In this document: one piece after another, positions 16,501 to 63,162 of the stretch
How positions within the stretch are numbered: position 1 is the stretch's first letter
Layout of the letters: every line of letters begins with the position of its first letter
Source: a virus
Length of the DNA: 64,000 bases
IMG/VR virus record: IMGVR_UViG_3300035698_012088
Location: 95,413-159,412 of that record
Strand: one strand, 5' to 3'
Notes under the pieces: generated by a model
What the model was told of the DNA's origin: nothing
The model's input: only the letters and a program-made list of their open reading frames with translations
The model's database searches: none
Made by a program: the position numbers and the translations under genes

Positions 16501-17194
16501 TTTTGTTGAGTTAGACAAATGTACATATATCATAGGTATCATAGGACTTAACGATGCACTCAACTATATGTATGGTAAAGAGATGCACGATGACCCAGAG
16601 ATTATGGACAAGGCACTCAAAGTAGTAGCCCATATGTACCATAAGACTCAGAACTACACAAAGAAACATGGACTCAAGTTTACTCTTGAAGAGACTCCAG
16701 CTGAATCCGCTGCAAGAAGATTAGCCAAAACTGATCTTAAGTTCTACCCAGAATCTGCAGGAGTGATCAAAGGTGGAGAGGACACAGAGTATTATACCAA
16801 TAGCATCCATCTCAGTGCAGATGCAGATGTATCTCTCATAGAGAGGATTAGAGAACAAGCCAAGTTTCACTCCCTAATTGAATCTGGGGCCATAACCCAT
16901 GCTTTTGTGGGCGAGGAAAATCCAGATCCCAAGACAATAGAGACATTAGTAGAGAGGGTGTTCTTAGATACCCAATCTGCACAGATCACAATATCCCCTG
17001 AGTTTACAATCTGTGACCGCTGTAAAAAGCAAAGTAGAGGACTGGAAGACACATGTGTTCATTGTGGAAGCCCAGAGGTGAAACACTTAACACGAGTTGT
17101 GGGTTATTTCTCTCTGATAGAAAACTGGAATAAGTCTAAGAGAGAAGGAGAACTCAATGCAAGACATACAGGAGAATATAGAGTCGGAACCTGA
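13583..17194 (+). CDS. nrdD: Anaerobic ribonucleotide reductase with intein
   Basis: The 1203-residue precursor of class III ribonucleoside-triphosphate reductase, which makes dNTPs without oxygen. An N-terminal ATP-cone (about 5-95) is followed by the NRDD core (CSSHSIEYL, FSRGGQTLFLDFNIHSG). A 347-residue intein interrupts it between two adjacent Cys (532/533); the spliced protein would read SAC-CRLR, as in T4 NrdD, with 856 residues. The C-terminus has the zinc site CDRCKKQ ... CVHCGSP and the glycyl-radical region LTRVVGYFSLIENWN. No activase (NrdG) gene is seen in the window. A thioredoxin-fold gene follows closely. Confidence 0.95.
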   Translation: MIEEMTFQKFQKRDGKIVNFDEAKIEAAVHKAYIAARGSNHSLVPSIVSEKVAEKVYGEDEAIWHINQVHDLVAMYLKEVGCDDVGVAYTEYRLKRDKARKEIKVKNTTKSKKSITDASLLLVEASDCYTTTWDRNEIEKTLETQTELDSDTREAIAKLVENKVIDSGLKTITTAFVRELINTVLHEGNYGCEVQDLTVYRISRDFVDNLMYDKVDENSNISNNNPEAVSMAISEVVLKEWALDTVFSDELKRAHLTGAIHLHDLGYPHRVYCSSHSIEYLKKYGLVGHDNLNTESAPAKSASVLTGHLNTYLASMQANYAGALGLGYVNIFYAPYLVGKTDKEMKQVAQELIFNGSQNAFSRGGQTLFLDFNIHSGVPSYLRDVPVIGPGGKYKATMNGHDALLEDRYEKEEDPNGNKLMSLWHGDLCVYKEVYTKHGYKVEYPYTDIKLMTYKDYEVESRRFCSALLKVWEEGDKNGNIFPFPKCDFHVDADTFLKEENHKLFSKACELSSVNGSTYFVFDRDAVTLSACCFSGDQDILIKGSAKVTKTKFKDFKDLDYEAYKRNLTIFHNGAWCKGKYIETDSTDVDFYKIKTTNNKEMVVTADHIFPTWGGDTVACQLDVEDYLQFNTLELDKLATQDLGLTFEQGFLIGLYLGDGSLDKSGRKHDVCFSLNERDYNIALPYLTKALEDWNISANICLNTPYNNVHPVRISSAELIDFIRVWIAGNHCYEKELDLNALVQSTEFREGIVHGYYTSDGGNSNRIYSTSKKLIDQMECVFTSLGMQTTIDVSDRTDEPVIIRGEQFKRNHPLYCIRWFNLKNRRAYPEHYKVHNNSVYFKIESIENLGTISDKAYCFEMDNTEEPYFTLPSGVITHNCRLRTTLDDKYALMHPELVSFCGFQNVTVNLPQAAYRAARKGNKSIEGFLEEIDNTMSLCVQAHLQKKDKIAQLLDKPGKPLYQIGKIAAHGKPFVELDKCTYIIGIIGLNDALNYMYGKEMHDDPEIMDKALKVVAHMYHKTQNYTKKHGLKFTLEETPAESAARRLAKTDLKFYPESAGVIKGGEDTEYYTNSIHLSADADVSLIERIREQAKFHSLIESGAITHAFVGEENPDPKTIETLVERVFLDTQSAQITISPEFTICDRCKKQSRGLEDTCVHCGSPEVKHLTRVVGYFSLIENWNKSKREGELNARHTGEYRVGT
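15179..16219 (+). mobile_element. Intein with LAGLIDADG endonuclease
   Basis: A 347-residue intein inside NrdD. It begins at Cys1 (CFSGDQDILI), has the splicing block TADHIF (TxxH) near intein residue 73, and ends VITHN followed by Cys+1 of the extein. Two LAGLIDADG-type motifs are present (LIGLYLGDGS near 120-129; VHGYYTSDGG later), so the homing endonuclease is probably active. All residues expected for splicing are visible, so excision should restore the CysCys junction. Confidence 0.92.
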
Positions 17195-21252: not shown

Positions 21253-21681
21253 ATGCGTGAAATCTGCACAGAATGCGGTGAAATTAAAGAAGTTGAGGAA
21301 GTACTCTTCCAAAGCTACTTTGCTCCCCCAGAACACCCAAAAGGCACAAAAATGTCAGACATCACTGACCAAGAAGCCTTTGAATTAGTAAGAGGAGAGG
21401 GAGCAGTATCTAGACTTTTATGCGAAGCATGTAAAACCTTACTCATAGATGTTTTTGAATTCCCTCTATATGAAGAGGTGCTAATGGAAGAAGTCACAGA
21501 GGAACATACCCCAACACCATTTACTGGAGAGCAGATGGAAGAAGCTAAGGCACAGCTGAAAACTATCTTCGGAGAAGGTGATGAATTAGACAAAGCTATG
21601 GAAGCATTAGAGAAACAACAGAAGGACCTCTTAGAGGCTAATGAAAAAGCTGAAGAAACAACAGTGGAGGAAGACACATGA
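21253..21681 (+). CDS. Unknown acidic protein with two CxxC
   Basis: A 142-residue protein. CTECGEIK at 5-12 and CEACKTLL near 60 may form one zinc ribbon; the rest is a long acidic helix with coiled-coil character (KAMEALEKQQKDLLEANEKA). Not recognised. It overlaps the next gene by ATGA. Confidence 0.7.
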   Translation: MREICTECGEIKEVEEVLFQSYFAPPEHPKGTKMSDITDQEAFELVRGEGAVSRLLCEACKTLLIDVFEFPLYEEVLMEEVTEEHTPTPFTGEQMEEAKAQLKTIFGEGDELDKAMEALEKQQKDLLEANEKAEETTVEEDT

Positions 21682-22001
21682 CAGATATCGTAGCCCAATA
21701 TTCCATTACAGATACAACTAGGAACCAAAAGGTTGTCTTCACATTAAAAGATGTGACAGAAGACACAACCCTAACAATGCATATAGATATCACCAAAGCG
21801 TCAACCGGTGTCTCTATAATGGATAGAACGTGTAAGAACTGGCCGCTCAAGAAAGCGCTTAAAACAATAGATACCTTAAGGGGCGTAAATAAAAAGATGT
21901 ACTCCCCTCAGCTAAATATGAGAGGCCAGGTAGAAGTTCTTAAGGATATATCTGAAGAAGATAGAGTAGAGATGGTAGCAATGATAGCGAGCAAGGAGTA
22001 A
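21678..22001 (+). CDS. Tandem paralog A, unknown function
   Basis: A 107-residue protein related to its downstream neighbour: both start with YSI(T/S)D, share the hydrophobic strand VVFT, and carry YSPQL(N/H)(M/L)RG near 75-85. Probably a small beta-rich domain. Function unknown. Confidence 0.72.
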   Translation: MTDIVAQYSITDTTRNQKVVFTLKDVTEDTTLTMHIDITKASTGVSIMDRTCKNWPLKKALKTIDTLRGVNKKMYSPQLNMRGQVEVLKDISEEDRVEMVAMIASKE

Positions 22002-22003
22002 CA

Positions 22004-22333
22004 ATGGGCAAAAAGAACGTGACAGCAAAGTATTCTATATCAGATAAGAATAAGAATAAGAAAGCGGTATTTACTTTCTCATATGTTCCCGGGGAAACTA
22101 AGGTTTCTGTAGGGATTGAGATCTCCAGCCTGGACGATGATAAGACCCTGCTGGACAGAGAAGTATCTGGATATCCTATCTCCAGAGTACTTAAACTGGT
22201 AGATAAGTTCAATAATTCAGAAGTAGTGTATTCTCCTCAGCTCCACCTTAGAGGCGAATCAGAAATTATTAAAGACCTTAGTCAAGCAGACAAAGACCTA
22301 ATGGCAGCCAGTGTGGTATGTGAGGAGCTATAA
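22004..22333 (+). CDS. Tandem paralog B, unknown function
   Basis: A 109-residue paralog of the preceding protein (AKYSISD ... KKAVFTFSYV ... VYSPQLHLRGESEIIKDLS). The pair probably arose by tandem duplication. The stop shares one base with the next ATG. Confidence 0.72.
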   Translation: MGKKNVTAKYSISDKNKNKKAVFTFSYVPGETKVSVGIEISSLDDDKTLLDREVSGYPISRVLKLVDKFNNSEVVYSPQLHLRGESEIIKDLSQADKDLMAASVVCEEL

Positions 22334-39710: not shown

Positions 39711-39908
39711 ATGGCTATGAAGAAGACACACTACTATCATGGAATATGTTCTATTAGTAAATTGCAGAATCCTACATCCTGGGCAACAATGTGCGGATTA
39801 AGAGTTATAAAGAAAGAGAGTAAGAGAAAGATAACTAGAGATGAAGAGAAGGTAACATGTAAATTATGTAGATCTCTACTCTTTAGGAGGTTTGTGGATA
39901 AATTATGA
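39711..39908 (+). CDS. Zinc-knuckle array protein 1
   Basis: 65 residues: KTHYYHG, ATMCGL, EEKVTCKLCRSLL, end FVDKL. Directly follows RNA ligase and overlaps copy 2 by ATGA. Function unknown. Confidence 0.75.
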   Translation: MAMKKTHYYHGICSISKLQNPTSWATMCGLRVIKKESKRKITRDEEKVTCKLCRSLLFRRFVDKL

Positions 39909-40099
39909 ATCCTAAATATACAAAGATCATGGATAAGCCTACACAGGTTGTTCATATGCGGAGCACATTTCTGACAAGAAGAGTGTGCGATCTCGCCTAT
40001 GTTATAAACCCAAGAGAAGATTTAACAAGTGATGAAGATAAGGTAACTTGTCCTAACTGCCTATATCAGATGACAAGAAGTATATTGGAGGCATTATGA
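39905..40099 (+). CDS. Zinc-knuckle array protein 2
   Basis: 64 residues: VVHMRST, RRVCDL, EDKVTCPNCLYQM, end ILEAL. The Gly after the middle Cys is replaced by Asp. Confidence 0.75.
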   Translation: MNPKYTKIMDKPTQVVHMRSTFLTRRVCDLAYVINPREDLTSDEDKVTCPNCLYQMTRSILEAL

Positions 40100-40266
40100 G
40101 TAAAATACATAGAAGCTGGTGGAGGAGGAATGAGAAATTACGTACAAAAAGGCTATGTGATGGAATTGATGACAAATATTTTGGACATATAACTATAGAT
40201 GAAACTAAAGTTACATGTAAACACTGTGAGAGAATAATAATTAGAGTAATGGCTAACTACTTATGA
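40096..40266 (+). CDS. Zinc-knuckle array protein 3
   Basis: The shortest copy, 56 residues: SKIHRSWW, KRLCDGI, ETKVTCKHCERII, end MANYL. It keeps all four ligands with a spacer of only about 25 residues, so it approximates the minimal module. Confidence 0.75.
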   Translation: MSKIHRSWWRRNEKLRTKRLCDGIDDKYFGHITIDETKVTCKHCERIIIRVMANYL

Positions 40267-40469
40267 AAGACCTACCAAACCCTTGGGTACACTTTATGTA
40301 CTGGCAACCCATCAAATGTTTCTGGGGAGATAGTGTGAAATTAGTATTGTTTTGTGATGCTGACTCCATGTTTCATATAAGAGACTTAAAAAGAACTGAG
40401 TGCCAGGAGGAGGTAACATGTCCAAAGTGCAAGAGCAGAATAATAGAGAAAGCTCTGGAGAATTTATAG
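40263..40469 (+). CDS. Zinc-knuckle array protein 4
   Basis: 68 residues: WVHFMYW, LVLFCDA, QEEVTCPKCKSRI, end ALENL. The codons for EEVTC contain aggaggtaac followed by ATG in another frame, a possible start of copy 5. Confidence 0.75.
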   Translation: MKDLPNPWVHFMYWQPIKCFWGDSVKLVLFCDADSMFHIRDLKRTECQEEVTCPKCKSRIIEKALENL

Positions 40470-40648
40470 TACATTACTTTGATATTCAACATGTGCCCTA
40501 TACCTATAATCTATATAGGTATAAATCCTTATGTGTAACAAAAGGGCACCAGTTTAACAGTGATAAACCTAACAATGTTCCACCAGAAGAGGTAACTTGT
40601 GAAGAATGTCAAAGGTTACTCTTGATGAAGACGCTAAACAACCTGTAA
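40418..40648 (+). CDS. Zinc-knuckle array protein 5
   Basis: 76 residues from the ATG at 40418, which lies inside the VTC codons of copy 4 behind aggaggtaac. The module proper is IVHYFDI, SLCVTKG, EEVTCEECQRLL. No ATG or GTG exists after the stop of copy 4; the only other option is an ATA overlapping that stop (ATAG). Confidence 0.68.
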   Translation: MSKVQEQNNRESSGEFIVHYFDIQHVPYTYNLYRYKSLCVTKGHQFNSDKPNNVPPEEVTCEECQRLLLMKTLNNL

Positions 40649-40663
40649 AAAGGGAGAGGTGAA

Positions 40664-41140
40664 ATGGCCGAACCAGTTCTATCAGAAGAAGACAAGCAGT
40701 TTCTGGCTGCACTTTTACCTGATGGTGAAGACGATACAGTAGAGATTAAAGAGAATAAGAAACACGCTATAGAGAATATAGTTGAGAACATATCTAAAGA
40801 AGACAAAGCAAAGGCAGCTAAAGAGAAAAGGGCTAAAAATGCTAGATACAAAAGACAAGAAAAAAAAGAGACTGAAAAGTTTCTCCAAGAACTTCTCAAA
40901 GATAAAAAAGAAGAAAAAGTAGTAGAAGAGGAAGAAGTAGTACACTGGGTTAGAAAGAAGTATGACACTCCCTCTCTGATGAATGAGAGTCTGGGGCCTC
41001 TATATCTTGCCAGATGCAAAGTGTATCTCCAAGGAGATGCAGAAGGCAAAGTAATTGAACACGGTTCTACAGACACAGCTGATGTAACATGTCAGACTTG
41101 TCTAGAACTTCTAATGGAAAACATCAGGGACGCTCTATGA
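40664..41140 (+). CDS. Zinc-knuckle protein 6 with coiled coil
   Basis: 158 residues, the longest single-module copy. A charged coiled-coil-like extension (about 1-95, KAKAAKEKRAKNARYKRQEK) precedes the module VVHWVRKK, ARCKVYL, ADVTCQTCLELL. It overlaps the DNA ligase start by ATGA, so the two are translated together. Confidence 0.75.
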   Translation: MAEPVLSEEDKQFLAALLPDGEDDTVEIKENKKHAIENIVENISKEDKAKAAKEKRAKNARYKRQEKKETEKFLQELLKDKKEEKVVEEEEVVHWVRKKYDTPSLMNESLGPLYLARCKVYLQGDAEGKVIEHGSTDTADVTCQTCLELLMENIRDAL

Positions 41141-42420
41141 ATCAACTCGAAGAACTGCAACGCTTTGTAACAGAAGCAAACCAAACAACCTCAAGTAATG
41201 ATAAGAAGAAAGTCATTGCTAAATACCCACAGTGCAAGAAGATGTGGAATTACATATATGACAGCATGGCCTACACATATGGAGTAACCTCAAAGAGGGT
41301 TAAGAGCAAACCAGAGCTAACTACAGAGGATACCTATATCTCTATGGAAGCTTTGCTCCTAGATCTTAATGCTAGGGTCTTAACAGGTCATGCTGCAATT
41401 GCTGCTATCAATAGATTTGTAGCAGATAATGTCCAGTATAAGAATCTAATCTATGGTATCTTGGATAGGAATATCAAGACCAGAACAGATGCCAAGCTGA
41501 TCAATAAGATCTTTCCAGGATGCATTCCAGTATTCTTGGTAGCCTTAGCTGAGAAGTATGAAGATGGGATGAACATAGACTTTGATGTAGAAGTCTGGTT
41601 AGAGTCCCGGAAACTAGATGGAGTTAGATGTTTAGGCTTTGTGGATGCTGAGAACAATGTGACCCTTAAGTCTAGAACAGGTAAGCCTTTCAAGACTCTA
41701 GGTGTAGTAGGTAAAGTCCTTAAGAAGATGAATACACCCAATACAGTGTATGATGGAGAGCTGTGCTTAGTGGATGAGAAGGGTGTGGAGAACTTCCAAG
41801 AAGTGATGAAGTATATTCAGAAGAAGAACTTCACTATCCCCAATCCAAGGTACAAGCTCTTTGACATGCTAACCACTGAGGAGTTTGAGTCTGAAGTAGG
41901 AGATAGAATCCTCTCAGATAGACTCTCCCTGATCAAGGACAGTATCCCAGAAGACCAAGAGGTTGTCGTTCAACTTGACCAACATGTCATAAGAGATGAA
42001 AAGCATTTTCAAGAGAGAATGCAGGTCGCAGATAAGAATGGCTGGGAAGGTAATATCATCAGGAAAGATATTGGATATAAAGGCAAGAGATCCAAGGATA
42101 TGCTTAAGTGCAAGAAGTTCCATGAGACCGAGAAGGAGGTTGACTCAATAGCAACAGGGATGATTAGATATATTGAGGATAAAGTAGAATATGAGGAAGA
42201 GATGATGACTAAAGTTTTCATCACTCATAAGGGTAATGATGTAGGGGTTGGATCTGGGTGGAGTAGAGAACAGAGACAGTACTACTTTAAACACCCCGAA
42301 GACCTCATAGGTAAAATTATCACCATACAATACTTCGAAGAAACACTGGACGAAACCGGAAAATTAAGCTTAAGGTTCCCTACTATCAAGTGGGTTCATG
42401 GAGATCAAAGAGATACTTGA
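41137..42420 (+). CDS. ATP-dependent DNA ligase
   Basis: A 427-residue ligase like T4 gp30, sealing nicks in replication and recombination. Lys159 in RKLDGVRC is the adenylated residue (KxDG); VYDGELCLVD is motif III, GWEGNIIRKD motif IV and DMLKCKKFHE motif V. The ATG at 41137 overlaps the stop of zinc-knuckle copy 6; the frame is open further upstream but only within that gene. Its position inside the array suggests the array grew around it. Confidence 0.92.
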   Translation: MNQLEELQRFVTEANQTTSSNDKKKVIAKYPQCKKMWNYIYDSMAYTYGVTSKRVKSKPELTTEDTYISMEALLLDLNARVLTGHAAIAAINRFVADNVQYKNLIYGILDRNIKTRTDAKLINKIFPGCIPVFLVALAEKYEDGMNIDFDVEVWLESRKLDGVRCLGFVDAENNVTLKSRTGKPFKTLGVVGKVLKKMNTPNTVYDGELCLVDEKGVENFQEVMKYIQKKNFTIPNPRYKLFDMLTTEEFESEVGDRILSDRLSLIKDSIPEDQEVVVQLDQHVIRDEKHFQERMQVADKNGWEGNIIRKDIGYKGKRSKDMLKCKKFHETEKEVDSIATGMIRYIEDKVEYEEEMMTKVFITHKGNDVGVGSGWSREQRQYYFKHPEDLIGKIITIQYFEETLDETGKLSLRFPTIKWVHGDQRDT

Positions 42421-42932
42421 TAGGATGAAATATAGTCATATAGCTTCAATACAGTAGATGGAGAATCGTTTAGGAAACCCAAAGCTTTATTACATCTACT
42501 ACATAAACACCCCCTAGTTTTTCCAGTATTATGGTCGTGATCTATACAAAGTATTCCTTCAATAATCCCGCAACAATTACATCCTTTAGCTTTAATTTTC
42601 GATGCCTCTTTTAAAGTTAAACCATATTTGCGCTGGTAGTGAAGATCTAGCGCCTTTTCTTTATTCTTTATATAATATGCATGGGCCCGCCCTCTGTTTC
42701 TTTTGTTATAGGCATGGTCTCTTTCTTTAAGTCTATCTTTATTCTTTTCACGGTACTCCTGATGAGTTTTTCTAATCTTGTCTTTATTCTTTAAATGATA
42801 CTCTTTACCCCATTCCTTATCGCACTCTTTACACCAACACTTATAACCATCCTTCAGGTTTTTAGCTTTACTAAAGAGTTCTTCAGCTGGCTTCTCAAGC
42901 TTACATTTTGAACATAGTTTAAGCACATCCAT
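42405..42932 (-). CDS. Endonuclease VII-like HNH protein
   Basis: A 175-residue minus-strand nuclease. N-terminal ribbons CSKCKLEKPAEELF and CWCKECDKE and a basic helix lead to CNCCGIIEGILCIDHDHNTG, RGCLCSRCNKALGFLNDSP, the zinc and His-Me core of the endonuclease VII family. Such short versions are usually homing nucleases. It overlaps the ligase 3' end and the HTH gene upstream. Confidence 0.87.
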   Translation of the reverse strand: MDVLKLCSKCKLEKPAEELFSKAKNLKDGYKCWCKECDKEWGKEYHLKNKDKIRKTHQEYREKNKDRLKERDHAYNKRNRGRAHAYYIKNKEKALDLHYQRKYGLTLKEASKIKAKGCNCCGIIEGILCIDHDHNTGKTRGCLCSRCNKALGFLNDSPSTVLKLYDYISSYQVSL

Positions 42933-43092
42933 CTCCTTTTAAAAAGCTGTTTAAGTTCTCTTCAGTCACTCTGGTAATCCCAGCCTTGGCTGCTTTGAGT
43001 TTACCTGACTTAATCCATAGTCTTACAGTTTTAGGGCTGACTTTTAGAATTTCCGCTACTTCTTTTACAGTGTATGTGGGAATAATACTCAT
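42919..43092 (-). CDS. Excisionase/MerR-like HTH protein
   Basis: 57 residues: YTVKEVAEILKVSPKTVRLW with ITRVTEENLNSFLKG, the layout of the small HTH_17 excisionase-type domains. Met at 43092 has aaaggag upstream. It overlaps and probably regulates or accompanies the endonuclease VII-like gene; the two may move as a unit. Confidence 0.8.
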   Translation of the reverse strand: MSIIPTYTVKEVAEILKVSPKTVRLWIKSGKLKAAKAGITRVTEENLNSFLKGDGCA

Positions 43093-43117
43093 GGATATCT
43101 CCTTTGTTGTTAAAGAT

Positions 43118-43145
43118 AACATACATCAAAAAGGAACAAAAACAA
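43118..43145 (-). promoter_or_regulatory. Possible promoter, minus strand
   Basis: On the minus strand, TTGTTT (43145-43140), 16 bases, TATGTT (43123-43118), about 25 bases before the HTH gene. A small palindrome (gttaaagataac) overlaps the start region. Confidence 0.35.
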
Positions 43146-43185
43146 ACAATGTTGGTAAAAAAGAAACATTATGAAGGTGAGAGGG

Positions 43186-43386
43186 ATGTGTAAGGAGTGT
43201 GTGCCCAAGTCCAGACATAGAGTTGTACACTATATACGACATGAGACCGGGTTCACAAAGTACATGTCATATTGCTGGTGGACAGGAGAACCTACTTCCC
43301 ACAGACACTTCACTACAGAGGAAGATAAAGTAACCTGTAAGCTCTGTAAAAAATGGATGCTTACTCAGATTGTGAGGGCCCTATAA
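43186..43386 (+). CDS. Zinc-knuckle array protein 7
   Basis: 66 residues beginning MCKECVPKSRH, an extra N-terminal CxxC also seen in copies 8, 14 and 15. Module: VVHYIRH, MSYCWW, EDKVTCKLCKKWM. The ATG at 43186 follows gagagg; an upstream Met at 43171 is possible. Confidence 0.72.
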   Translation: MCKECVPKSRHRVVHYIRHETGFTKYMSYCWWTGEPTSHRHFTTEEDKVTCKLCKKWMLTQIVRAL

Positions 43387-43607
43387 TGTGTAAAAAGTGT
43401 AAGCGTCCCGATGAGTCCTGGAATAGAAGCTCTCTACATAAAGTTCATCTTTGGACACATGAGTCCCTTTCTTTACCTTATATGCCTCCCTGTGGCTGTG
43501 AAGGTGGATACATCTGGGAATTTCTGCATTTCACTAAAGATACTGAGAAAGTAACATGTAAGACTTGTAAGAAGTTAATAACAAAATTAATATTGGAGGC
43601 TTTATGA
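43386..43607 (+). CDS. Zinc-knuckle array protein 8
   Basis: 73 residues starting MCKKCKRPDESW, then KVHLWTH, PPCGCEG, TEKVTCKTCKKLI, end LILEAL. Shares one base with the previous stop (TAATG). Confidence 0.75.
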   Translation: MCKKCKRPDESWNRSSLHKVHLWTHESLSLPYMPPCGCEGGYIWEFLHFTKDTEKVTCKTCKKLITKLILEAL

Positions 43608-43837
43608 CAACAGTACACTACTTTAATATAGGATGTGAGGAGAATGGAAGATTAACACAGGATATGCATAGCCCAGATACTATGGCAATTGCCACTGAAT
43701 GTGGACTTATAAAGAAGCCTTTATGGACAGTAAAAGAACAGAAGCATACATACCTAGATGTCACAGAGAACAGCGAGGATGTAACATGTCCTGCCTGTTT
43801 AGAGATCATAACTAAAAAGATGTGTGAGGCACTATGA
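43604..43837 (+). CDS. Zinc-knuckle array protein 9
   Basis: 77 residues: TTVHYFNIGCEENG, ATECGLI, SEDVTCPACLEII, end MCEAL. One additional Cys after the first strand. Confidence 0.75.
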   Translation: MTTVHYFNIGCEENGRLTQDMHSPDTMAIATECGLIKKPLWTVKEQKHTYLDVTENSEDVTCPACLEIITKKMCEAL

Positions 43838-44208
43838 AAAAGAAAAAGGTACATTTAGCTAAGCCTAATCAGGGAGACCCTAGATGTGACTCTTGTGGAC
43901 AGGAGATAGTTGTATCTTATTGTGGGTGGAAATATAATCCACTTTCCCCCTTTATTACAGAAGATATAGAAAAGGCTACTTGTAAAGGATGTCTTAAAGT
44001 ACAAGCTACTTTAGAGTACATACCTAAGATCCACTATAGAGCTGATGTAAAATATACTTATTCTACTGGATCCTATGTTTCTAAACAGGCTATTTGCGGA
44101 CTACCTTATATAGGAGAATATAAAAAGAGGTTTACTTCTGAAGAATCTGAGGTTACATGTAAGACTTGTAAGAAGTACCTCCTAGGAAGGGTAATAAAGT
44201 CATTATGA
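43834..44208 (+). CDS. Double-module zinc-knuckle protein 10
   Basis: 124 residues with two complete modules: KVHLAKP ... CDSCGQEI ... EKATCKGCLKV, then KIHYRAD ... QAICGLPY ... SEVTCKTCKKYLL. It looks like a fusion of two neighbouring copies by loss of a stop. Confidence 0.75.
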   Translation: MKKKKVHLAKPNQGDPRCDSCGQEIVVSYCGWKYNPLSPFITEDIEKATCKGCLKVQATLEYIPKIHYRADVKYTYSTGSYVSKQAICGLPYIGEYKKRFTSEESEVTCKTCKKYLLGRVIKSL

Positions 44209-44405
44209 GCCCTGCAAAAGAAAATAATAGGTTAACAGGAAAGCACTTTGTTGTGCAGGCAATGGGCACGTACTGGCCTTGGACCTCATTGTGTGGTAAT
44301 ACATATTATAGTAATGTTCTAGACTGTGTAACAGAGTCTCCAGATGAGGTAACATGTAGAGTATGTAAGAAGTTATTGTTGAATCACATATTGGAGAAAT
44401 TGTAA
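44205..44405 (+). CDS. Zinc-knuckle array protein 11
   Basis: 66 residues: GKHFVVQA (His shifted two positions), TSLCGNT, PDEVTCRVCKKLL, end ILEKL. Confidence 0.74.
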   Translation: MSPAKENNRLTGKHFVVQAMGTYWPWTSLCGNTYYSNVLDCVTESPDEVTCRVCKKLLLNHILEKL

Positions 44406-44638
44406 TGCCAAGCCGACTTGATGAAGAAGATGGAAGAGTCCATTTTCATAAGTTCTCTATGTCAGATACACGGGATATTCCTCACTCTGTATCCTGGTGT
44501 GCCCGCTTCTTTGATGGCATCTGGGATTCTGAAACAGAAGATTATGTTCTTAGGGATGATCTGACAAGGAATGAAGAAGAAGTAACTTGTCAAAGATGTA
44601 TAAGTAACTTTGAGAGAGATATTATAAAAGCTATCTAA
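44405..44638 (+). CDS. Zinc-knuckle array protein 12
   Basis: 77 residues: RVHFHKF, VSWCARF, EEEVTCQRCISNF, end DIIKAI. The stop codon touches the first base of the tRNA-like RNA. Confidence 0.75.
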   Translation: MPSRLDEEDGRVHFHKFSMSDTRDIPHSVSWCARFFDGIWDSETEDYVLRDDLTRNEEEVTCQRCISNFERDIIKAI

Positions 44639-44704
44639 GGGGATGAAACGGCTTCGATTTACGTCATTGGCGTGAAGACTTGGGTTCGACTCCCAACATC
44701 TCCA
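44639..44704 (+). ncRNA. Mini tmRNA-like RNA, 66 nt
   Basis: Acceptor GGGGATG (44639-44645) pairs with CATCTCC (44697-44703), with G3-T70 as the third pair, the alanine identity element; discriminator A. The T arm ttggg/cccaa with loop ttcgact abuts the acceptor. The 5' part GGCTTCGA (44650-44657) matches the D-loop block of tmRNA (GGnTTCGA). There is no canonical D arm or anticodon arm; a 5-bp hairpin (ttacg/cgtga, loop of seven) takes their place. No tag-coding region is seen. A diverged tRNA gene is the alternative. Confidence 0.55.
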
Positions 44705-44726
44705 AAAATAAAGAAGAGAGGACAAT

Positions 44727-45008
44727 ATGAACAAGGTTCACTATGTTAAACCATGGCCTGATATGCATATAGAGGCTTCCAAACTTAATGTCTATATGGC
44801 AGACATAGAAATGAAATCTGTCTGTGGTAAGGTCGTAGCCTTCAAGCAACTAAGAATAGTTGGACACCTTGTTGGACATCAAATCATTGCAGAGATTGAC
44901 AGCACATATAGAAGTCAAAGCAACTGCTATTGGGACACCAATATGGATAATGTAACTTGTGCTACTTGTAATAAACACATAGCAAAGGAAATTTTGAAAG
45001 GAATATAA
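44727..45008 (+). CDS. Zinc-knuckle array protein 13
   Basis: 93 residues: KVHYVKPW, KSVCGKV, long insert, MDNVTCATCNKHI. First gene after the RNA; its own ribosome site (agagagga) restarts translation. Confidence 0.75.
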   Translation: MNKVHYVKPWPDMHIEASKLNVYMADIEMKSVCGKVVAFKQLRIVGHLVGHQIIAEIDSTYRSQSNCYWDTNMDNVTCATCNKHIAKEILKGI

Positions 45009-45281
45009 ATGTGTTATAAATGTGAAAAGGATAGACCAAGTGGTTACAACTTTTATGGAAGAGCTTCTAAGATACATTTTATAAATAGAGAGCTATCCGA
45101 GACAAATGACCCTATAGATGTGAAAGGCTGGACCTGTAGTTGTGGATATGAGGCTCTTCGTTGGGAACATAGACACGTTACTGATGATTACTTTAAAGTG
45201 ACTTGTTCTAAGTGTAAAGCAATAATTCCTCATGCATTTTTAGACGACCTAGTAGGAGAATTAAAGGAGAAACATGTGTAA
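45009..45281 (+). CDS. Zinc-knuckle array protein 14
   Basis: 90 residues: MCYKCEKDRP, GRASKIHFIN, CSCGYEALRWEHRHVT, FKVTCSKCKAII. Close paralog of copy 15, so this duplication is recent. Confidence 0.76.
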   Translation: MCYKCEKDRPSGYNFYGRASKIHFINRELSETNDPIDVKGWTCSCGYEALRWEHRHVTDDYFKVTCSKCKAIIPHAFLDDLVGELKEKHV

Positions 45282-45642
45282 ATTATGTATAAGAGATAGG
45301 CCTAAGAAGTTAGGTATGTATGGACGTGCAAATAGGGTGCATCTTATGATAGAGAAAATTCCAAGGGCATTGGTCGATGACGTAGTTTACACTACACAAT
45401 GTGATTGGCAAGCTATAGCCTTTGAACATAGGCATATAACAGAGAATGTATTGGAAGTTACCTGTTCTAAATGTCTAAGTAAGATTGGGGAACTAATACT
45501 AGAGGGAATAGTACCTTCAAGAAAACAGTGCAACGGCTGGAAAAGATATAAGGCTATGAGAAAACCTAAGTGTAACTGCGGAAAGTGTTTAGCCAAATGG
45601 GAAAGAAAACAAAAAAGAAAAAGCATTGCAGAGTCTACTTAA
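45274..45642 (+). CDS. Zinc-knuckle array protein 15, extended
   Basis: 122 residues: MCKLCIRDRP, GRANRVHLMI, TQCDWQAIAFEHRHIT, LEVTCSKCLSKI, then a basic extension with KPKCNCGKCLAKW. The extra Cys group may bind a second zinc. Confidence 0.75.
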   Translation: MCKLCIRDRPKKLGMYGRANRVHLMIEKIPRALVDDVVYTTQCDWQAIAFEHRHITENVLEVTCSKCLSKIGELILEGIVPSRKQCNGWKRYKAMRKPKCNCGKCLAKWERKQKRKSIAEST

Positions 45643-45848
45643 CAAAGAGATGGGAAGTCCCAAGTAAAAATAGAGACCACTGGGGTACATATATAAAGAT
45701 AAAGAAGTCTAGGATACTAAAGACCTTTCTCTGTAAGGCTAGAAGATATCCTAAAGGAGACATATTAGAAGAAGATCTCTCTAATGAAGAGGTAACATGT
45801 GCAAAATGTCTGAAGATAATTGTCCAAAGAACAATAGAAAGTCTGTGA
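45597..45848 (+). CDS. Zinc-knuckle array protein 16
   Basis: 83 residues with a very basic start (MGKKTKKKKHCRVYLTKRW). The usual His is replaced (VYL), with HC four residues before. Then TFLCKA and NEEVTCAKCLKII. Confidence 0.7.
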   Translation: MGKKTKKKKHCRVYLTKRWEVPSKNRDHWGTYIKIKKSRILKTFLCKARRYPKGDILEEDLSNEEVTCAKCLKIIVQRTIESL

Positions 45849-46030
45849 GTCATTACTATTGCAGCCCTACTGTAGGTAGTTTTAAGAGGATACATAAAGG
45901 GAGGTTGTGTAAGTATGGCGCGGCATTCATAAAAAGATGGGGGTTTAGGATAACTAATTTAGATTCAGAGGTTATTACCTGTGAAGACTGTAAAAAGAGA
46001 TACTTAAGGTATCTAACAGAGGCACTATGA
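45845..46030 (+). CDS. Zinc-knuckle array protein 17
   Basis: 61 residues from a GTG overlapping the previous stop (GTGA): SHYYCSP, GRLCKYG, SEVITCEDCKKRY, end LTEAL. An in-frame ATG at 45797 lies inside copy 16; the GTG gives the pattern seen in the family. Confidence 0.7.
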   Translation: MSHYYCSPTVGSFKRIHKGRLCKYGAAFIKRWGFRITNLDSEVITCEDCKKRYLRYLTEAL

Positions 46031-46167
46031 GAAAGAGACTTAAGAAGAAAAAGAGATCCTGTGCTATGTGTAAACCCTACAAGATGCACTGGGAGAATAG
46101 GTGGAAGCCTAAAGACGAAGCTAGGTTGAAAGACTTTGAAAAAGAAAAGAAACAAAGAGAAGACTGA
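46027..46167 (+). CDS. 46-residue basic CxxC protein
   Basis: MRKRLKKKKRSCAMCKPYKM and a charged helix. It lacks the module but has a CxxC and sits in frame order between copies 17 and 18, so it may be a truncated copy with only the MCxxC start. Confidence 0.55.
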   Translation: MRKRLKKKKRSCAMCKPYKMHWENRWKPKDEARLKDFEKEKKQRED

Positions 46168-46357
46168 GTCTTTAGACACCCATTACTACTTTAATTGTAG
46201 ACAATACCCTGATTTTAATATGAGACTTTGTTTGATTACTGCAAATGCCTACAAAGACTTTTATGACACAAGACACAGCATAGCAAACCATGAAGAGGAC
46301 GTGACATGTCAAAGGTGCCAAGAACTGATGATAAAACTCCTAATGACAAAAATATAG
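46136..46357 (+). CDS. Zinc-knuckle array protein 18
   Basis: 73 residues from a TTG: DTHYYFN, MRLCLIT, EEDVTCQRCQELM, end LLMTKI. No ATG or GTG precedes the module, so the start codon is uncertain. Confidence 0.62.
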   Translation: MKKKRNKEKTESLDTHYYFNCRQYPDFNMRLCLITANAYKDFYDTRHSIANHEEDVTCQRCQELMIKLLMTKI

Positions 46358-46527
46358 AATCCCATTACTACGGTCATCCTGGGGGGTACAGCATCCCCTT
46401 TAAGATCTGTAGCTATGCTCTCTCTACTATGCTGTGGAGAGGTCTCATAGTACACAATAAAACAGCAGAAGTAAAGTGTGAAAAATGTCAACAGAGACTA
46501 CTAAAAATGTTAGTGAACAGGCTATGA
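46306..46527 (+). CDS. Zinc-knuckle array protein 19
   Basis: 73 residues from an ATG inside the VTC codons of copy 18 (gaggacgtgacATG): ESHYYGH, FKICSYA, AEVKCEKCQQRL. VTC has become VKC. As in copy 5, the only alternative is an ATA overlapping the previous stop. Confidence 0.65.
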   Translation: MSKVPRTDDKTPNDKNIESHYYGHPGGYSIPFKICSYALSTMLWRGLIVHNKTAEVKCEKCQQRLLKMLVNRL

Positions 46528-46862
46528 GTAAAAAACCTAAAGTACATTATTACAGAGATATTGAGATAGAGACAGAGAACACATATGAATATGATGAACA
46601 TGGGTGGTGTAAATACGATAAGTGGGATAATGCTATAATACGGCCTGGTAAAGAAATAACTGCTACCCTTACCTCTATATGTGGAGCAGCAGGAGATGAA
46701 GGCACTGCACAAATGACATGTGATATAGAAGATGGAGAGATAGTAACTAAGGTTACCCCAACAGAAAAAATTGATATGACATTTTGGACTAAAGATCCAG
46801 ATAAGGTAACATGTGAGAGATGTAAGAAAAGTCTTCTAAAGAAAACAGTGGAGGCGTTATAA
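46524..46862 (+). CDS. Zinc-knuckle array protein 20
   Basis: 112 residues: KVHYYRDIEI, TSICGAAG, PDKVTCERCKKSLL, end TVEAL. A long acidic insert lies between the middle Cys and CxxC. ATGA overlap. Confidence 0.76.
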   Translation: MSKKPKVHYYRDIEIETENTYEYDEHGWCKYDKWDNAIIRPGKEITATLTSICGAAGDEGTAQMTCDIEDGEIVTKVTPTEKIDMTFWTKDPDKVTCERCKKSLLKKTVEAL

Positions 46863-46863
46863 C

Positions 46864-47151
46864 ATGCCTAGATCCCCAAAGGTACATTTGTTTAGGATTA
46901 TAAATCAAGATGTTACCCGCTATAGAGAGTATAACATGTTTATTAAAATAGAGACACTATGTGGGCACGAGCTACACGAGAATGTTCTGATTATACTGGG
47001 CTACGATATAGAGGGTAACATTACTGCAAAGGTAACTAAAGCCCCAGAAGACCCCAGGTGGCCTCCTTGGGGAATAACACAAGATCATGATAACTGCACT
47101 TGTGAAAACTGCAAAAGAATCCTTCTCTCTCAAACAATAAAAGCTTTATGA
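46864..47151 (+). CDS. Zinc-knuckle array protein 21
   Basis: 95 residues: KVHLFRI, ETLCGHE, DNCTCENCKRIL, end TIKAL. VTC is replaced by CTC. Confidence 0.75.
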   Translation: MPRSPKVHLFRIINQDVTRYREYNMFIKIETLCGHELHENVLIILGYDIEGNITAKVTKAPEDPRWPPWGITQDHDNCTCENCKRILLSQTIKAL

Positions 47152-47372
47152 ATAAGAAAAGAAAGATTTACTATATGTTTGTACCTACTCACACTTTCTT
47201 CTCTGTGACTAGGCATAAAGTTAGAACCAGTTTCTGGTATACTTTTGCCAGGCTAGATAAGAGCTTTTGTGGAAGGGAGCTGGTCTCAAACTGTGCAACT
47301 AATGATCTAAGTAAAGTAACATGTAAAATTTGTGACAGAATGTTAACAAGGATTACAGTGGAGGAGCTATGA
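47148..47372 (+). CDS. Zinc-knuckle array protein 22
   Basis: 74 residues: KIYYMFV (Tyr at the His position), KSFCGRE, LSKVTCKICDRML, end TVEEL. Confidence 0.74.
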   Translation: MNKKRKIYYMFVPTHTFFSVTRHKVRTSFWYTFARLDKSFCGRELVSNCATNDLSKVTCKICDRMLTRITVEEL

Positions 47373-47680
47373 GTAAAGAAAAAGTCGTTCATTTATATGT
47401 CTCCACAAATGCACATATATCTCACCGCAATTCAGCTAGAGATACCTTTCATGTGATATTTAAACCTAGCTCTTTGTGTGGAGTTCTCTTAGTTAGGTTG
47501 AACTGCAATATGGAGATACACCTGGAGCCGGACCATACTGTCCATACAAGGTTCTATGGTATGGACACTTTACCTGGAAGACCTCCCAAGTATCCACATT
47601 TGTTTACCTTGGACCCAGAGGAGGTCACTTGTACCAACTGTCTAGAGATTCTATTAAAACAAGTGACATCTAAGTTATGA
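47369..47680 (+). CDS. Zinc-knuckle array protein 23
   Basis: 103 residues: VVHLYVS, SSLCGVL, PEEVTCTNCLEIL. The insert contains several further His (HLEPDHTVHTRF). Confidence 0.75.
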   Translation: MSKEKVVHLYVSTNAHISHRNSARDTFHVIFKPSSLCGVLLVRLNCNMEIHLEPDHTVHTRFYGMDTLPGRPPKYPHLFTLDPEEVTCTNCLEILLKQVTSKL

Positions 47681-47946
47681 AAAAGATTATACATTTTGCA
47701 GAGGCTCCAGAGGCAACTCCTTTAAGAGACCATATAGAGATAGCTATGATGTCAATATGCGGTATTGAAATAGGGTATACTAATTACAAAGTAATCCCTG
47801 AGCAGTTTGGATGGAAGCTATCAGCAACATTCATCCCTTTTGAAGAAGTGATGTTTGACGATGTCTTTTGGACTACAAACCCAGAGGGCGCCACCTGTGA
47901 GAAATGTAAGAAGATGATATTGCAAAGGACATTGGAAAGTCTATGA
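47677..47946 (+). CDS. Zinc-knuckle array protein 24
   Basis: 89 residues: IIHFAEA, MSICGIE, PEGATCEKCKKMI, end TLESL. VTC is replaced by ATC. Confidence 0.75.
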   Translation: MKKIIHFAEAPEATPLRDHIEIAMMSICGIEIGYTNYKVIPEQFGWKLSATFIPFEEVMFDDVFWTTNPEGATCEKCKKMILQRTLESL

Positions 47947-48134
47947 GTAAGATCACCCACATGAAGGGCTTTAATACAGATAAGATCACTAGGTGTGGCA
48001 AATACCGATATACCTTTAGGTTAGAAAGAGGTAGATGGAAGAACGATATAGCATCCATGACTGATGATGCAGAGTATGTAACTTGCCCTGGTTGTAACAA
48101 AAGGATTGTAGAGGAGTTAGAACTATACCTATGA
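47943..48134 (+). CDS. Zinc-knuckle array protein 25
   Basis: 63 residues: KITHMKG, TRCGKYR, AEYVTCPGCNKRI. Short spacer, close to the minimal module. Confidence 0.75.
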   Translation: MSKITHMKGFNTDKITRCGKYRYTFRLERGRWKNDIASMTDDAEYVTCPGCNKRIVEELELYL

Positions 48135-48409
48135 GTAACAAACCTAAAGTACACTATTCTAAAGAGAAACCCGTAGTAGATACTTCTTTTGCCGAGGTCC
48201 GTGTCTATCTTCTTACCCAATGTGAAAGATATATAAAAGACTATTCCCTAACCTTTAAAGTAGTACCAGATAAAAACGGTGCACCTAATATAAGATCTGT
48301 AAGGGCCGGATTTGATAGAGATATCATTTTAGTAACAACAGATCCTGAAAAGGTTACCTGTAAAGTCTGTTCTAAGTATCTAGCCAAAAAAGTAGTGGAG
48401 AAATTGTAA
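48131..48409 (+). CDS. Zinc-knuckle array protein 26
   Basis: 92 residues: KVHYSKE, LTQCERY, PEKVTCKVCSKYL, end VVEKL. Last copy; shares one base with the next gene. Confidence 0.75.
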   Translation: MSNKPKVHYSKEKPVVDTSFAEVRVYLLTQCERYIKDYSLTFKVVPDKNGAPNIRSVRAGFDRDIILVTTDPEKVTCKVCSKYLAKKVVEKL

Positions 48410-53302: not shown

Positions 53303-53309
53303 AATCAAT

Positions 53310-53391
53310 GGTCCCATGGTGGAATTGGCATACACAACAGATTCAAAATCTGTCGCTTAAATGCATCCCGGTTCAAGTCCGGGTGGGATCA
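53310..53391 (+). tRNA. tRNA-Leu(CAA)
   Basis: Acceptor ggtccca/tgggatc, discriminator A, no encoded CCA. The anticodon stem acaga/tctgt closes ttcaaaa, with anticodon CAA at 53344-53346; long variable arm; T arm cccgg/ccggg. Confidence 0.9.
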
Positions 53392-53415
53392 GACTGTTTT
53401 TGTAAAGGAGTTAGT

Positions 53416-53871
53416 ATGATTTGGCCATGGCAAAAGAAAGAAGAGGTACTCCCTCCAGAGCCTCCCCATGAGCATTTGTTTACTGGATCAATAGAAGATG
53501 GATATCAATATTGTTTGGGTTGTGGAGAAGCCATTCCAGTACAGCCTATAAAATGTACCCACCTGGAGTTAGACCCTGAAATATATAAGGGTTACCAGAA
53601 ATGTATTAAGTGTAGTAAAGCTATAGCAGTAGCTGCCTGTCCCCATATTCATTTAGCAGAAATGGTTGATTCTTTTCAGAGGTGCGAAGACTGTGGTAAA
53701 CTCTTACCTGTCAAACCTCCTCCTTGTCACCATGAGTGGGAAGAGAAAGAATGTTTTCCTATAGAGAGACTGAATAACAGACTTAACAAACAGGTTACCG
53801 TAGCAAAGAAATATGTGTTTGAGTGTAAGAGGTGTAAGACCTTTAAGTCTAACACTGTAAACCTAACCTAG
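53416..53871 (+). CDS. Triple zinc-finger repeat protein
   Basis: 151 residues made of three repeats of about 35 residues: H-H ... GYQYCLGCGEAIPVQPIKCTH, GYQKCIKCSKAIAVAACPHIH and FQRCEDCGKLLPV ... CHHEW, then a C-terminal ribbon ending FECKRCKTF. A single-repeat relative is at 59173. ATG with aaaggag upstream, just after tRNA-Leu. Confidence 0.78.
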   Translation: MIWPWQKKEEVLPPEPPHEHLFTGSIEDGYQYCLGCGEAIPVQPIKCTHLELDPEIYKGYQKCIKCSKAIAVAACPHIHLAEMVDSFQRCEDCGKLLPVKPPPCHHEWEEKECFPIERLNNRLNKQVTVAKKYVFECKRCKTFKSNTVNLT

Positions 53872-59172: not shown

Positions 59173-59409
59173 GTGAGTCTATTTCACAAACATACATTCC
59201 TTTCTGAAGTTAAGGATGGATATCAGTTCTGCAAAGTTTGTGGAAAAGCTGTACCTGTAGAACCTATAGGATGTGAACATATATGGGAAGAGTTTACACG
59301 ATTTGATACAAAGAGAACGAGTAATAAAGCTATTATAGCTAGAACCTTTATAATGAAATGCAGTCAATGTGGAGAGATGAAAAGACATCTCTTTAAAGTG
59401 GAAGACTAA
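59173..59409 (+). CDS. Single zinc-finger repeat protein
   Basis: 78 residues with one repeat of the 53416 type (HKHTFLSEVKDGYQFCKVCG, KAVPVEPIGCEHIW) and the same C-terminal ribbon (MKCSQCGEMK). GTG start; aggagg upstream. Confidence 0.7.
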   Translation: MSLFHKHTFLSEVKDGYQFCKVCGKAVPVEPIGCEHIWEEFTRFDTKRTSNKAIIARTFIMKCSQCGEMKRHLFKVED

Positions 59410-62070: not shown

Positions 62071-62331
62071 ATGACAACTAAACTTTGGATTGTGTATCAT
62101 GTGGAAGAGGGTGAGGTCTGGTTGGCTAGCAAACCAGCTTTCCTCACTACTAGAGGTTTAAAACAGTCTTTTGCCTATCTCCATATGAAACCAGAATCAG
62201 AAACAGATACAAAGATAGTATTTAAGTATAGAGGGTATGAGTCTAACAAAGACTGCTTCTATGTAGCAATACTTAAAACACTTAGAACAGATCTCTCTGC
62301 CTATGAGAAGAGATCTAAAAAGGATTTGTAA
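62071..62331 (+). CDS. Unknown 86-residue protein
   Basis: MTTKLWIVYHVEEGEVWLAS, mixed fold, basic end. Function unknown. Confidence 0.66.
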   Translation: MTTKLWIVYHVEEGEVWLASKPAFLTTRGLKQSFAYLHMKPESETDTKIVFKYRGYESNKDCFYVAILKTLRTDLSAYEKRSKKDL

Positions 62332-62717
62332 TGAAAAATGCGAAAACAATAAGATTCCTCGTAGTGTGTGGTATGACTTGGACAGGAGTCTTTGCAGTGT
62401 ATTCCCTTTGCCTGGTAGTTTTAGGAAGCTACTGGCAGGTACTTACCTGCCTTATACAAATTGCGGCCTTCCTGGTATTTAATAGGTGGAGAATAAATGG
62501 GAATAAGTGGAGAGAGCATATGAAGGTTGATCCTTTCCCCACCATTGCTACTATGAATAAAAAGGATTGCGAAGAGATATTAGGTACTGTCAAGACAGAA
62601 AGAGGCCTAATGCCTGATACTGAAGAACCTGATGTAGAGTACGAGGTGTGGCTTCATACTATAGAAGAAGCTTGTAACACTAGAATAGCAAAACTTGAAG
62701 AAGAAAAGGTTACATAA
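62331..62717 (+). CDS. Two-helix membrane protein, copy 1
   Basis: 128 residues: KTIRFLVVCGMTWTGVFAVY and WQVLTCLIQIAAFLVFNRW are membrane helices; cytoplasmic FPTIATMNKKDCEEILGTV and an acidic end. The next gene is a paralog. Confidence 0.72.
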   Translation: MKNAKTIRFLVVCGMTWTGVFAVYSLCLVVLGSYWQVLTCLIQIAAFLVFNRWRINGNKWREHMKVDPFPTIATMNKKDCEEILGTVKTERGLMPDTEEPDVEYEVWLHTIEEACNTRIAKLEEEKVT

Positions 62718-63162
62718 TGGTACATTTAAAGACAATGAGACGATTCAATATAGCAGGTATGGTTTGGTGCTCCTGCTGGGCATTCTTGTCACTTTGCCAT
62801 ATATTTTTAGGAAACATGTATCACATATTCCCCTTATTCTCCAATTAGTTGCCCTATATGTATTTAATAGAGGAAGCATACACTGTAGTGAAATTGAAGA
62901 TGATAAAGATGCAGAGAAAGACTGCACCACCCTCAATCCTTTTGAAGAGATAACTTCAATGGATAAAGAGTCTTGTGAAGCCGTGCTTGAGGTGCTTATA
63001 GAGTTAGATAGGGAAGGAAGCGACCCCGAGTTCGAAGAAGCAATAAAACTCAGGCTCAAAGTACTTGAACTTGAGGCTGAACTACAAGCAGAGAGAGAAG
63101 TAGTTATTGGAGAGAGTAAAAGAGAAGTTGAAGGAGAGGTAGATGAAACTAGTGACAGCTGA
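62717..63162 (+). CDS. Two-helix membrane protein, copy 2, frameshifted
   Basis: From ATG 62717 the first 31 residues (LKTMRRFNIAGMVW ...) match copy 1; the match continues in the -1 frame (LILQLVALYVFNR ... ITSMDKESCEAVLEVL) after ATTTTTA near 62801-62807. With the shift, 55 residues align to copy 1 without gaps. Without it, the second frame would need a TTG at 62695. A programmed -1 shift, a mutation or a missing T are possible. Confidence 0.62.

What the first reader, a model, noticed from the sequence alone, without database searches (positions are those of the whole stretch)
39711..48409. Tandem array of 26 diverged zinc-knuckle genes
Twenty-six consecutive small genes share a His ... 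Cys(Gly) ... VTCxxCxxxL layout but little else. The motif residues and gene overlaps are kept while the loops differ, as expected when copies are retained for different partners. Single proteins of this kind are known in phages; an 8-kb expansion suggests a repertoire, for example many inhibitors of host defence or RNA-binding factors. The array is the strongest candidate for an undescribed system here.
Basis: partly seen in the sequence, partly recalled or inferred. Interest (0 to 1): 0.92.

Follow-up and report, generated by a model that had tools for sequence, protein, structure and literature searches.

The report
Phage array of 26 zinc-finger genes
A large uncultured phage carries 26 neighbouring, strongly diverged copies of one small, probably zinc-binding protein, most likely a home-grown set of different host-binding proteins, and a second unrelated phage has built a similar set from the same family.

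Summary
In detail: 26 plus-strand genes (27 modules; gene 43834-44208 is a fusion of two) share one H...C...VTCxxC...L domain. Every module scores above 200 shuffles of itself against a profile of the others. The three Cys are invariant and His is in 24 of the 25 copies with a residue in that column. The array is not strictly consecutive: a 2-kb block with a DNA ligase, an endonuclease VII-type nuclease and an HTH gene splits it after gene 6. "Zinc knuckle" in the retroviral sense is wrong; ligand order and spacing differ. AlphaFold models of two divergent copies share short strands and a C-terminal helix, without a PDB match. No copies lie elsewhere in the 159-kb record; ten distant relatives have none. 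Adjacent copies resemble each other more than chance (p=0.003), so it grew by tandem duplication. Related single proteins occur in other phages, and a second, apparently independent array (about 15 modules) lies in an unrelated 68% GC phage contig. Precedent: Bacillus phage G has about 35 copies of a different zinc-ribbon family. Best reading: a co-translated repertoire of small zinc-stabilised binding domains aimed at different host targets (inferred). Zinc binding and function are untested.

The parts
39711..39908 (+). array gene 1
   Evidence: LOO 45.6 bits
39905..40099 (+). array gene 2
   Evidence: LOO 33.0 bits
40096..40266 (+). array gene 3; its CxxC half matches Pfam zf-BED above cut-off (26 bits, partial)
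   Evidence: LOO 31.6 bits
40263..40469 (+). array gene 4
   Evidence: LOO 32.1 bits
40418..40648 (+). array gene 5, starts inside the VTC codons of gene 4
   Evidence: LOO 28.5 bits
40664..41140 (+). array gene 6, module at the C-terminus of a charged ~90-aa extension
   Evidence: LOO 20.8 bits
41137..42420 (+). ATP-dependent DNA ligase, overlapping gene 6 by ATGA; interrupts the array
   Evidence: Pfam DNA_ligase_A_M 3.8e-14
42405..42932 (-). endonuclease VII-type nuclease, probable mobile element
   Evidence: Pfam Endonuclease_7 1.5e-13
42919..43122 (-). HTH_17 excisionase-like DNA-binding protein
   Evidence: Pfam HTH_17 7.7e-15
43171..43386 (+). array gene 7, extra N-terminal CxxC
   Evidence: LOO 49.8 bits
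43386..43607 (+). array gene 8, extra N-terminal CxxC
   Evidence: LOO 43.4 bits
43604..43837 (+). array gene 9
   Evidence: LOO 34.4 bits
43834..44208 (+). array gene 10, fusion of two modules
   Evidence: LOO 23.2 and 40.1 bits
44205..44405 (+). array gene 11; AlphaFold pLDDT 82
   Evidence: LOO 39.0 bits
44405..44638 (+). array gene 12
   Evidence: LOO 25.9 bits
44727..45008 (+). array gene 13 (long insert between Cys and VTCxxC)
   Evidence: LOO 31.5 bits
45009..45281 (+). array gene 14, close pair with gene 15
   Evidence: LOO 33.0 bits; only starred fork of the tree
45274..45642 (+). array gene 15
   Evidence: LOO 31.9 bits
45597..45848 (+). array gene 16 (start uncertain)
   Evidence: LOO 31.1 bits
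45806..46030 (+). array gene 17 (start uncertain)
   Evidence: LOO 25.5 bits
46027..46167 (+). small ORF without VTCxxC, possible remnant copy
   Evidence: start region like gene 10, repeat D16
46136..46357 (+). array gene 18 (start uncertain, TTG)
   Evidence: LOO 25.6 bits
46306..46527 (+). array gene 19, starts inside the VTC codons of gene 18
   Evidence: LOO 14.4 bits
46524..46862 (+). array gene 20
   Evidence: LOO 47.7 bits
46864..47151 (+). array gene 21
   Evidence: LOO 36.3 bits
47148..47372 (+). array gene 22 (His column is Tyr)
   Evidence: LOO 17.6 bits
47369..47680 (+). array gene 23
   Evidence: LOO 35.8 bits
47677..47946 (+). array gene 24
   Evidence: LOO 38.6 bits
47943..48134 (+). 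array gene 25
   Evidence: LOO 25.7 bits
48131..48409 (+). array gene 26; AlphaFold pLDDT 81, same core plus inserted strands
   Evidence: LOO 44.2 bits

Best explanation
The array is a lineage-specific tandem expansion of one small domain, a probable HCCC zinc-binding fold (short beta strands plus a C-terminal helix that starts at VTCxxC). The metal site holds a minimal scaffold; the loops between His and the middle Cys, and between that Cys and VTCxxC, vary freely. Copies arose by tandem duplication and were then kept under purifying selection while the loops diverged. The genes overlap and are probably read as one coupled, early operon, so the phage makes a cocktail of 26 different small binding proteins at once. 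I think each binds a different host protein (defence or takeover target). Shown: homology, scaffold conservation, loop divergence, adjacency signal, overlaps, a second array elsewhere. Inferred: zinc, early expression, host-protein targets.
For: Common domain in all 27 modules. Confident models of two divergent copies with the same core. 26 intact overlapping frames despite about 32% mean pairwise identity, and kept ligands, argue that each copy is selected. Adjacent copies are more alike than in permuted order, p=0.0027. Window copies cluster on the tree (3 changes against 14.9 shuffled) and one clade is not rejected, consistent with an expansion of its own. Net charges from -8 to +15 argue against one shared nucleic-acid target. 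A second, unrelated phage contig, G011, carries an array of about 15 homologous modules (profile-profile probability 96.6%). Published: amplification of counter-defence genes is a route by which T4-like phages escape host immunity (PMC9391042), and a homing endonuclease can drive it (PMC13096335).
Against: No target, interaction or expression data. The mean charge is slightly positive (+2.7), so nucleic-acid binding by part of the set is possible. Small zinc domains often bind nucleic acids. No known counter-defence protein is matched. In the T4 work the amplified genes are recent copies, whereas these are old and diverged. No close relative was found, so copy-number change between sister phages could not be seen.
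Confidence: 0.45

Rival explanations
1. The copies are nucleic-acid-binding factors: site-specific transcription factors or RNA-binding regulators of the phage, each for its own site.
For: Small zinc domains often bind nucleic acids; this was the suggestion made for the phage G expansion (PMC7824862). One copy partly matches zf-BED, a DNA-binding finger. Several copies are strongly basic (+7 to +15). A DNA ligase and an RNA ligase lie beside the array.
Against: Five modules have net charge of -4 or lower (down to -8); no conserved basic or aromatic position outside the motif region; the zf-BED match covers only the CxxC half and lacks the His half.
Confidence: 0.25
2. The copies are subunits of one multi-protein assembly (for instance a virion or replication component) in which paralogues occupy different positions.
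For: Co-translation by overlapping genes suits stoichiometric assembly; the C-terminal helix is regularly hydrophobic.
Against: Single-copy relatives exist in other phages, and 27 different positions would be many; no structural gene was recognised beside the array.
Confidence: 0.12
3. The array is mostly non-adaptive: tandem duplicates raised by recombination or homing-nuclease breaks, drifting and decaying.
For: Endonuclease VII-type nuclease inside the array and GIY-YIG and HNH nucleases elsewhere; a possible remnant ORF at 46027-46167; clear tandem-duplication signal.
Against: 26 of 26 genes are open with all Cys kept after very deep divergence; drift would have left stops.
Confidence: 0.1
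4. The likeness is chance or a convergent C-terminal tail on unrelated genes.
For: Most of the score lies in the last ~25 residues.
Against: Every module beats all its shuffles; the N-terminal His and middle Cys are also kept; common core fold; the same layout in other phages.
Confidence: 0.02

Closest known systems
Bacillus phage G zinc-ribbon expansion (~35 copies, e.g. YP_009015343.1; PMC7824862)
   Same: Large phage with a lineage-specific expansion of a small Cys-rich protein of unknown function, some copies in neighbouring genes.
   Different: Other family: CPxC...CxxxC with a KENDRYL-type tail. No match of profile A1 or A4 to the phage G record. Genes there are mostly spaced rather than overlapped in the stretch read.
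Array in contig G011 (IMGVR_UViG_3300005529_000953)
   Same: About 15 tandem or near-tandem modules of the same domain, overlapping frames.
   Different: 68% GC, unrelated phage; several ORFs hold two modules; copies mostly group apart from the window's copies.
Single-copy homologues: Actinomycetia phage DSL-LC01 WJZ48429.1, Pseudomonas phage Arace01 XAI69679.1
   Same: VH...C-G...T...VTCxxC layout.
   Different: One copy per genome by profile; function unknown.
tifA amplification in phage T4 (PMC9391042) and SegB-driven amplification of anti-defence genes (PMC13096335)
   Same: Tandem multiplication of a small accessory gene; endonucleases at hand.
   Different: There recent copies raise dosage; here the copies are old and diverged, and no defence target is known.

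Membership tests
H-C-CxxC phage mini-domain (G011, DSL-LC01, Arace01, G001 proteins) | His near the N-terminus, middle Cys, VTCxxC before a C-terminal helix, significant profile match | tested here: met
   A1 against A5 hhalign 96.6%, E 6e-10; A4 alignment with H, C, T, C, C invariant
Retroviral-type CCHC zinc knuckle | C-x2-C-x4-H-x4-C spacing | tested here: not met
   Ligand order is H...C...CxxC; no zf-CCHC match listed among 26 members
Phage G zinc-ribbon family | Four-Cys ribbon CxxC...CxxxC with KENDRYL tail | tested here: not met
   Sequences read; no profile match in the phage G record
zf-BED (Pfam PF02892) | CxxC followed by a His pair, full-length match | tested here: not met
   Only gene 3, profile positions 5-27 of 44, His half absent; no other member
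Lar-type restriction alleviation proteins (TIGR03655) | Match above curated cut-off | tested here: not met
   Best E 0.061 in one member
Zinc-binding protein | Bound zinc at the HCCC site | not testable with these tools
   Conserved ligands only; model coordinates are not exposed
Counter-defence / host-takeover proteins | Inhibits a host defence or host protein | not testable with these tools
   Needs experiment; PADLOC holds only defence proteins and gives no convincing match (best E 0.02)

The most novel reading that the evidence does not exclude
A viral binder repertoire: a metal-stapled mini-scaffold that phages multiply in tandem and diversify loop by loop, giving a standing cocktail of inhibitors against many host proteins, and which has grown independently in at least two unrelated phages.
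Probability: 0.3. Interest if true: 0.85.

Novelty: new variant of a known kind. Interest (0 to 1): 0.62.

Why it matters
Phage accessory regions are full of small unknown genes. Here 26 of them reduce to one scaffold with conserved metal ligands and free loops, so one structure and one assay type can address them all. If they are a repertoire of host-directed binders, the array is a natural library for finding phage targets. The recurrence of the same family in a second array makes the family, not just this genome, worth describing.

Tried and rejected
Chance or convergent tails (rejected). Membership in the phage G zinc-ribbon family. PHROG, Pfam, NCBIfam and PADLOC: no family that several members match convincingly. 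Searches with the flanking gene 48409, the ligase, the RecA-like gene and the portal in viral contigs found no close relatives; an alignment of the portal found 9 distant ones, and the 7 large records among them that were searched, plus Vibrio phage D181, Salmonella phage Arash and Stenotrophomonas phage DLP6, have no copies. The search for related loci with A1 failed for lack of conserved stretches, so spaced DNA patterns were used. The same pattern in 84,980 bacterial and archaeal genomes gave 36 stretches, none with a significant profile match. Foldseek against PDB found nothing; best viral model hit A0A6J5PD54 (TM 0.65, E 0.019, uncharacterised). Promoter scan close to shuffles (41 against 34.8 +/- 5.1). 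Literature searches for tandem zinc-finger arrays in phages gave nothing beyond phage G.

Full report
WHAT WAS CLAIMED. Cys(Gly) ... VTCxxCxxxL layout, and proposed a repertoire of zinc-knuckle proteins in a phage.

THE SEQUENCE. Open frames confirm 26 plus-strand genes carrying 27 modules; the gene at 43834-44208 is a fusion of two. In the 26-row alignment three Cys are invariant; the His is kept in 24 of the 25 rows with a residue in that column, the Thr before the first Cys of CxxC in 25 of 26, and the final Leu in 22. The rest is near random: mean column identity is 18%, mean pairwise identity about 32%. To test chance I built a profile from all modules but one and scored the one left out: 14.4 to 49.8 bits, in every case above all of about 200 shuffles of that protein. 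A module left out of the alignment was found in the genome search at E=7.6e-5.

CORRECTIONS. The run is not unbroken. After gene 6 come an ATP-dependent DNA ligase (overlapping gene 6 by ATGA), and on the other strand an endonuclease VII-type nuclease and an HTH_17 protein; gene 7 starts at 43171. Gly after the middle Cys is present in only 13 of 26. The starts of genes 16-19 are ambiguous, because ATG occurs inside the VTC codons (GTAACATGT) and three genes open there or just after it. The pattern is not the retroviral CCHC knuckle.

GENE COUPLING. Of 26 junctions 12 are ATGA overlaps and 3 are TAATG; most have a GGAG-like sequence, often written by the LEAL-type end of the upstream protein. 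This suggests a translationally coupled operon. I did not measure the same statistic for the rest of the genome, so I do not claim it is special to the array. A consensus promoter scan was close to shuffles.

FOLD. AlphaFold with the array's own alignment gave mean pLDDT 82 and pTM 0.66 for gene 11, and 81 and 0.59 for gene 26. Both have short strands and a helix that begins at the CxxC and runs to the C-terminus; gene 26 has extra strands inserted between the middle Cys and VTCxxC. Foldseek found no PDB relative; the best viral model is an uncharacterised 80-residue phage protein (TM 0.65, E 0.019). Coordinates were not exposed, so the geometry of the presumed HCCC site was not checked.

SURROUNDINGS AND GENOME. 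The record is a 159,412-base IMG/VR virus; the window is its last 64 kb. No further copies lie outside the array. Before the array is an Rnl1-type RNA ligase, after it an unknown gene with one distant match in Stenotrophomonas phage DLP6. The genome has no close relative in the phage collection; the portal's nearest relatives are Vibrio phage D181 and Salmonella phage Arash at 28-29%. Those two, Stenotrophomonas phage DLP6 and seven distant IMG/VR portal relatives of 172-193 kb carry no copies.

ORIGIN. Adjacent modules are more alike than in permuted orders (p=0.0027; separations of 2 or 3 are not significant), as expected for tandem duplication. In a tree of 46 modules the window's copies are strongly clustered (3 changes against 14.9 shuffled) and a single clade is not rejected (p-AU 0.45), though few forks are resolved. 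All 26 genes are open with their ligands kept at this depth of divergence, which I take as purifying selection on each copy (inference). A small frame at 46027-46167, with a gene-10-like start but no VTCxxC, may be a dying copy.

THE FAMILY ELSEWHERE. Spaced DNA patterns over 2.9 million viral contigs found true relatives (read with profiles). Contig G011 (15,243 bases, 68% GC, with terminase and portal genes) has an array of about 15 modules; 14 matches were found at E<=0.1 by profile A4, which includes some of its rows. The two arrays' profiles A1 and A5, which share no rows, match with 96.6% probability, E 6e-10. A 312-kb contig has two tandem copies, and several others have one to four. 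Single proteins occur in Actinomycetia phage DSL-LC01 and Pseudomonas phage Arace01. Of 12 other large phages, including phage G, only one has a weak match. The pattern scan of 84,980 prokaryote genomes gave no true array. These scans see only arrays with certain spacings, so rarity is an estimate.

WHAT IS KNOWN. [quoted passage not shown] I read the cited protein and its neighbours: they are CPxC...CxxxC proteins with a KENDRYL-type tail, unrelated by profile to ours. So the kind (a lineage-specific expansion of a small zinc-type protein in a large phage) is known once; this family, its tight overlapped array and its recurrence are not described in Pfam, PHROGs, NCBIfam or the papers I could search. 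Gene 3 alone passes Pfam's cut-off for half of zf-BED.

HOW IT MOST LIKELY WORKS. A minimal metal-held scaffold tolerates free change of its loops. Tandem copies, made by recombination, perhaps helped by the phage's own nucleases (an endonuclease VII-type gene sits inside the array; GIY-YIG and HNH genes elsewhere), were kept when their loops gained different partners. In T4 and T6, amplification of counter-defence genes under host immunity has been shown (PMC9391042, PMC13096335); an old, diverged array is what such a process could leave behind. The wide spread of net charge (-8 to +15) fits different protein targets better than one nucleic-acid target. I put 0.45 on a repertoire of host-protein binders, 0.25 on nucleic-acid regulators, 0.12 on a multi-subunit assembly, 0.10 on mostly non-adaptive growth.

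VERDICT. A real and unusual array, correctly spotted and nearly correctly described, of a small undescribed phage domain family; a new variant of a known kind of expansion, with function untested.

Noticed in passing
window 13583-17194: Anaerobic ribonucleotide reductase NrdD carries an intein-like insert with a LAGLIDADG_3 domain.
   Followed up: partly
window 180-815, 879-1355, 42405-42932: Several homing-type nucleases (GIY-YIG, HNH_3, endonuclease VII-type), the last one inside the array.
   Followed up: partly
window 53308-53871 and 59173-59409: A second small Cys-rich family: three internal H...CxxC repeats in one gene (whose ORF start lies inside a tRNA-Leu, so the true start is later) and a shorter relative downstream.
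   Followed up: no
window 21678-22333 and 62331-63162: Two further pairs of neighbouring, similar genes that look like tandem paralogues.
   Followed up: no
L054 126-1023 and L099: In contig G011 several frames hold two modules, the second lacking the long C-terminal helix.
   Followed up: partly
G009 and G010 (145 and 188 kb contigs, about 64% GC): Two apparently related large phages carry a few dispersed copies of the family.
   Followed up: no
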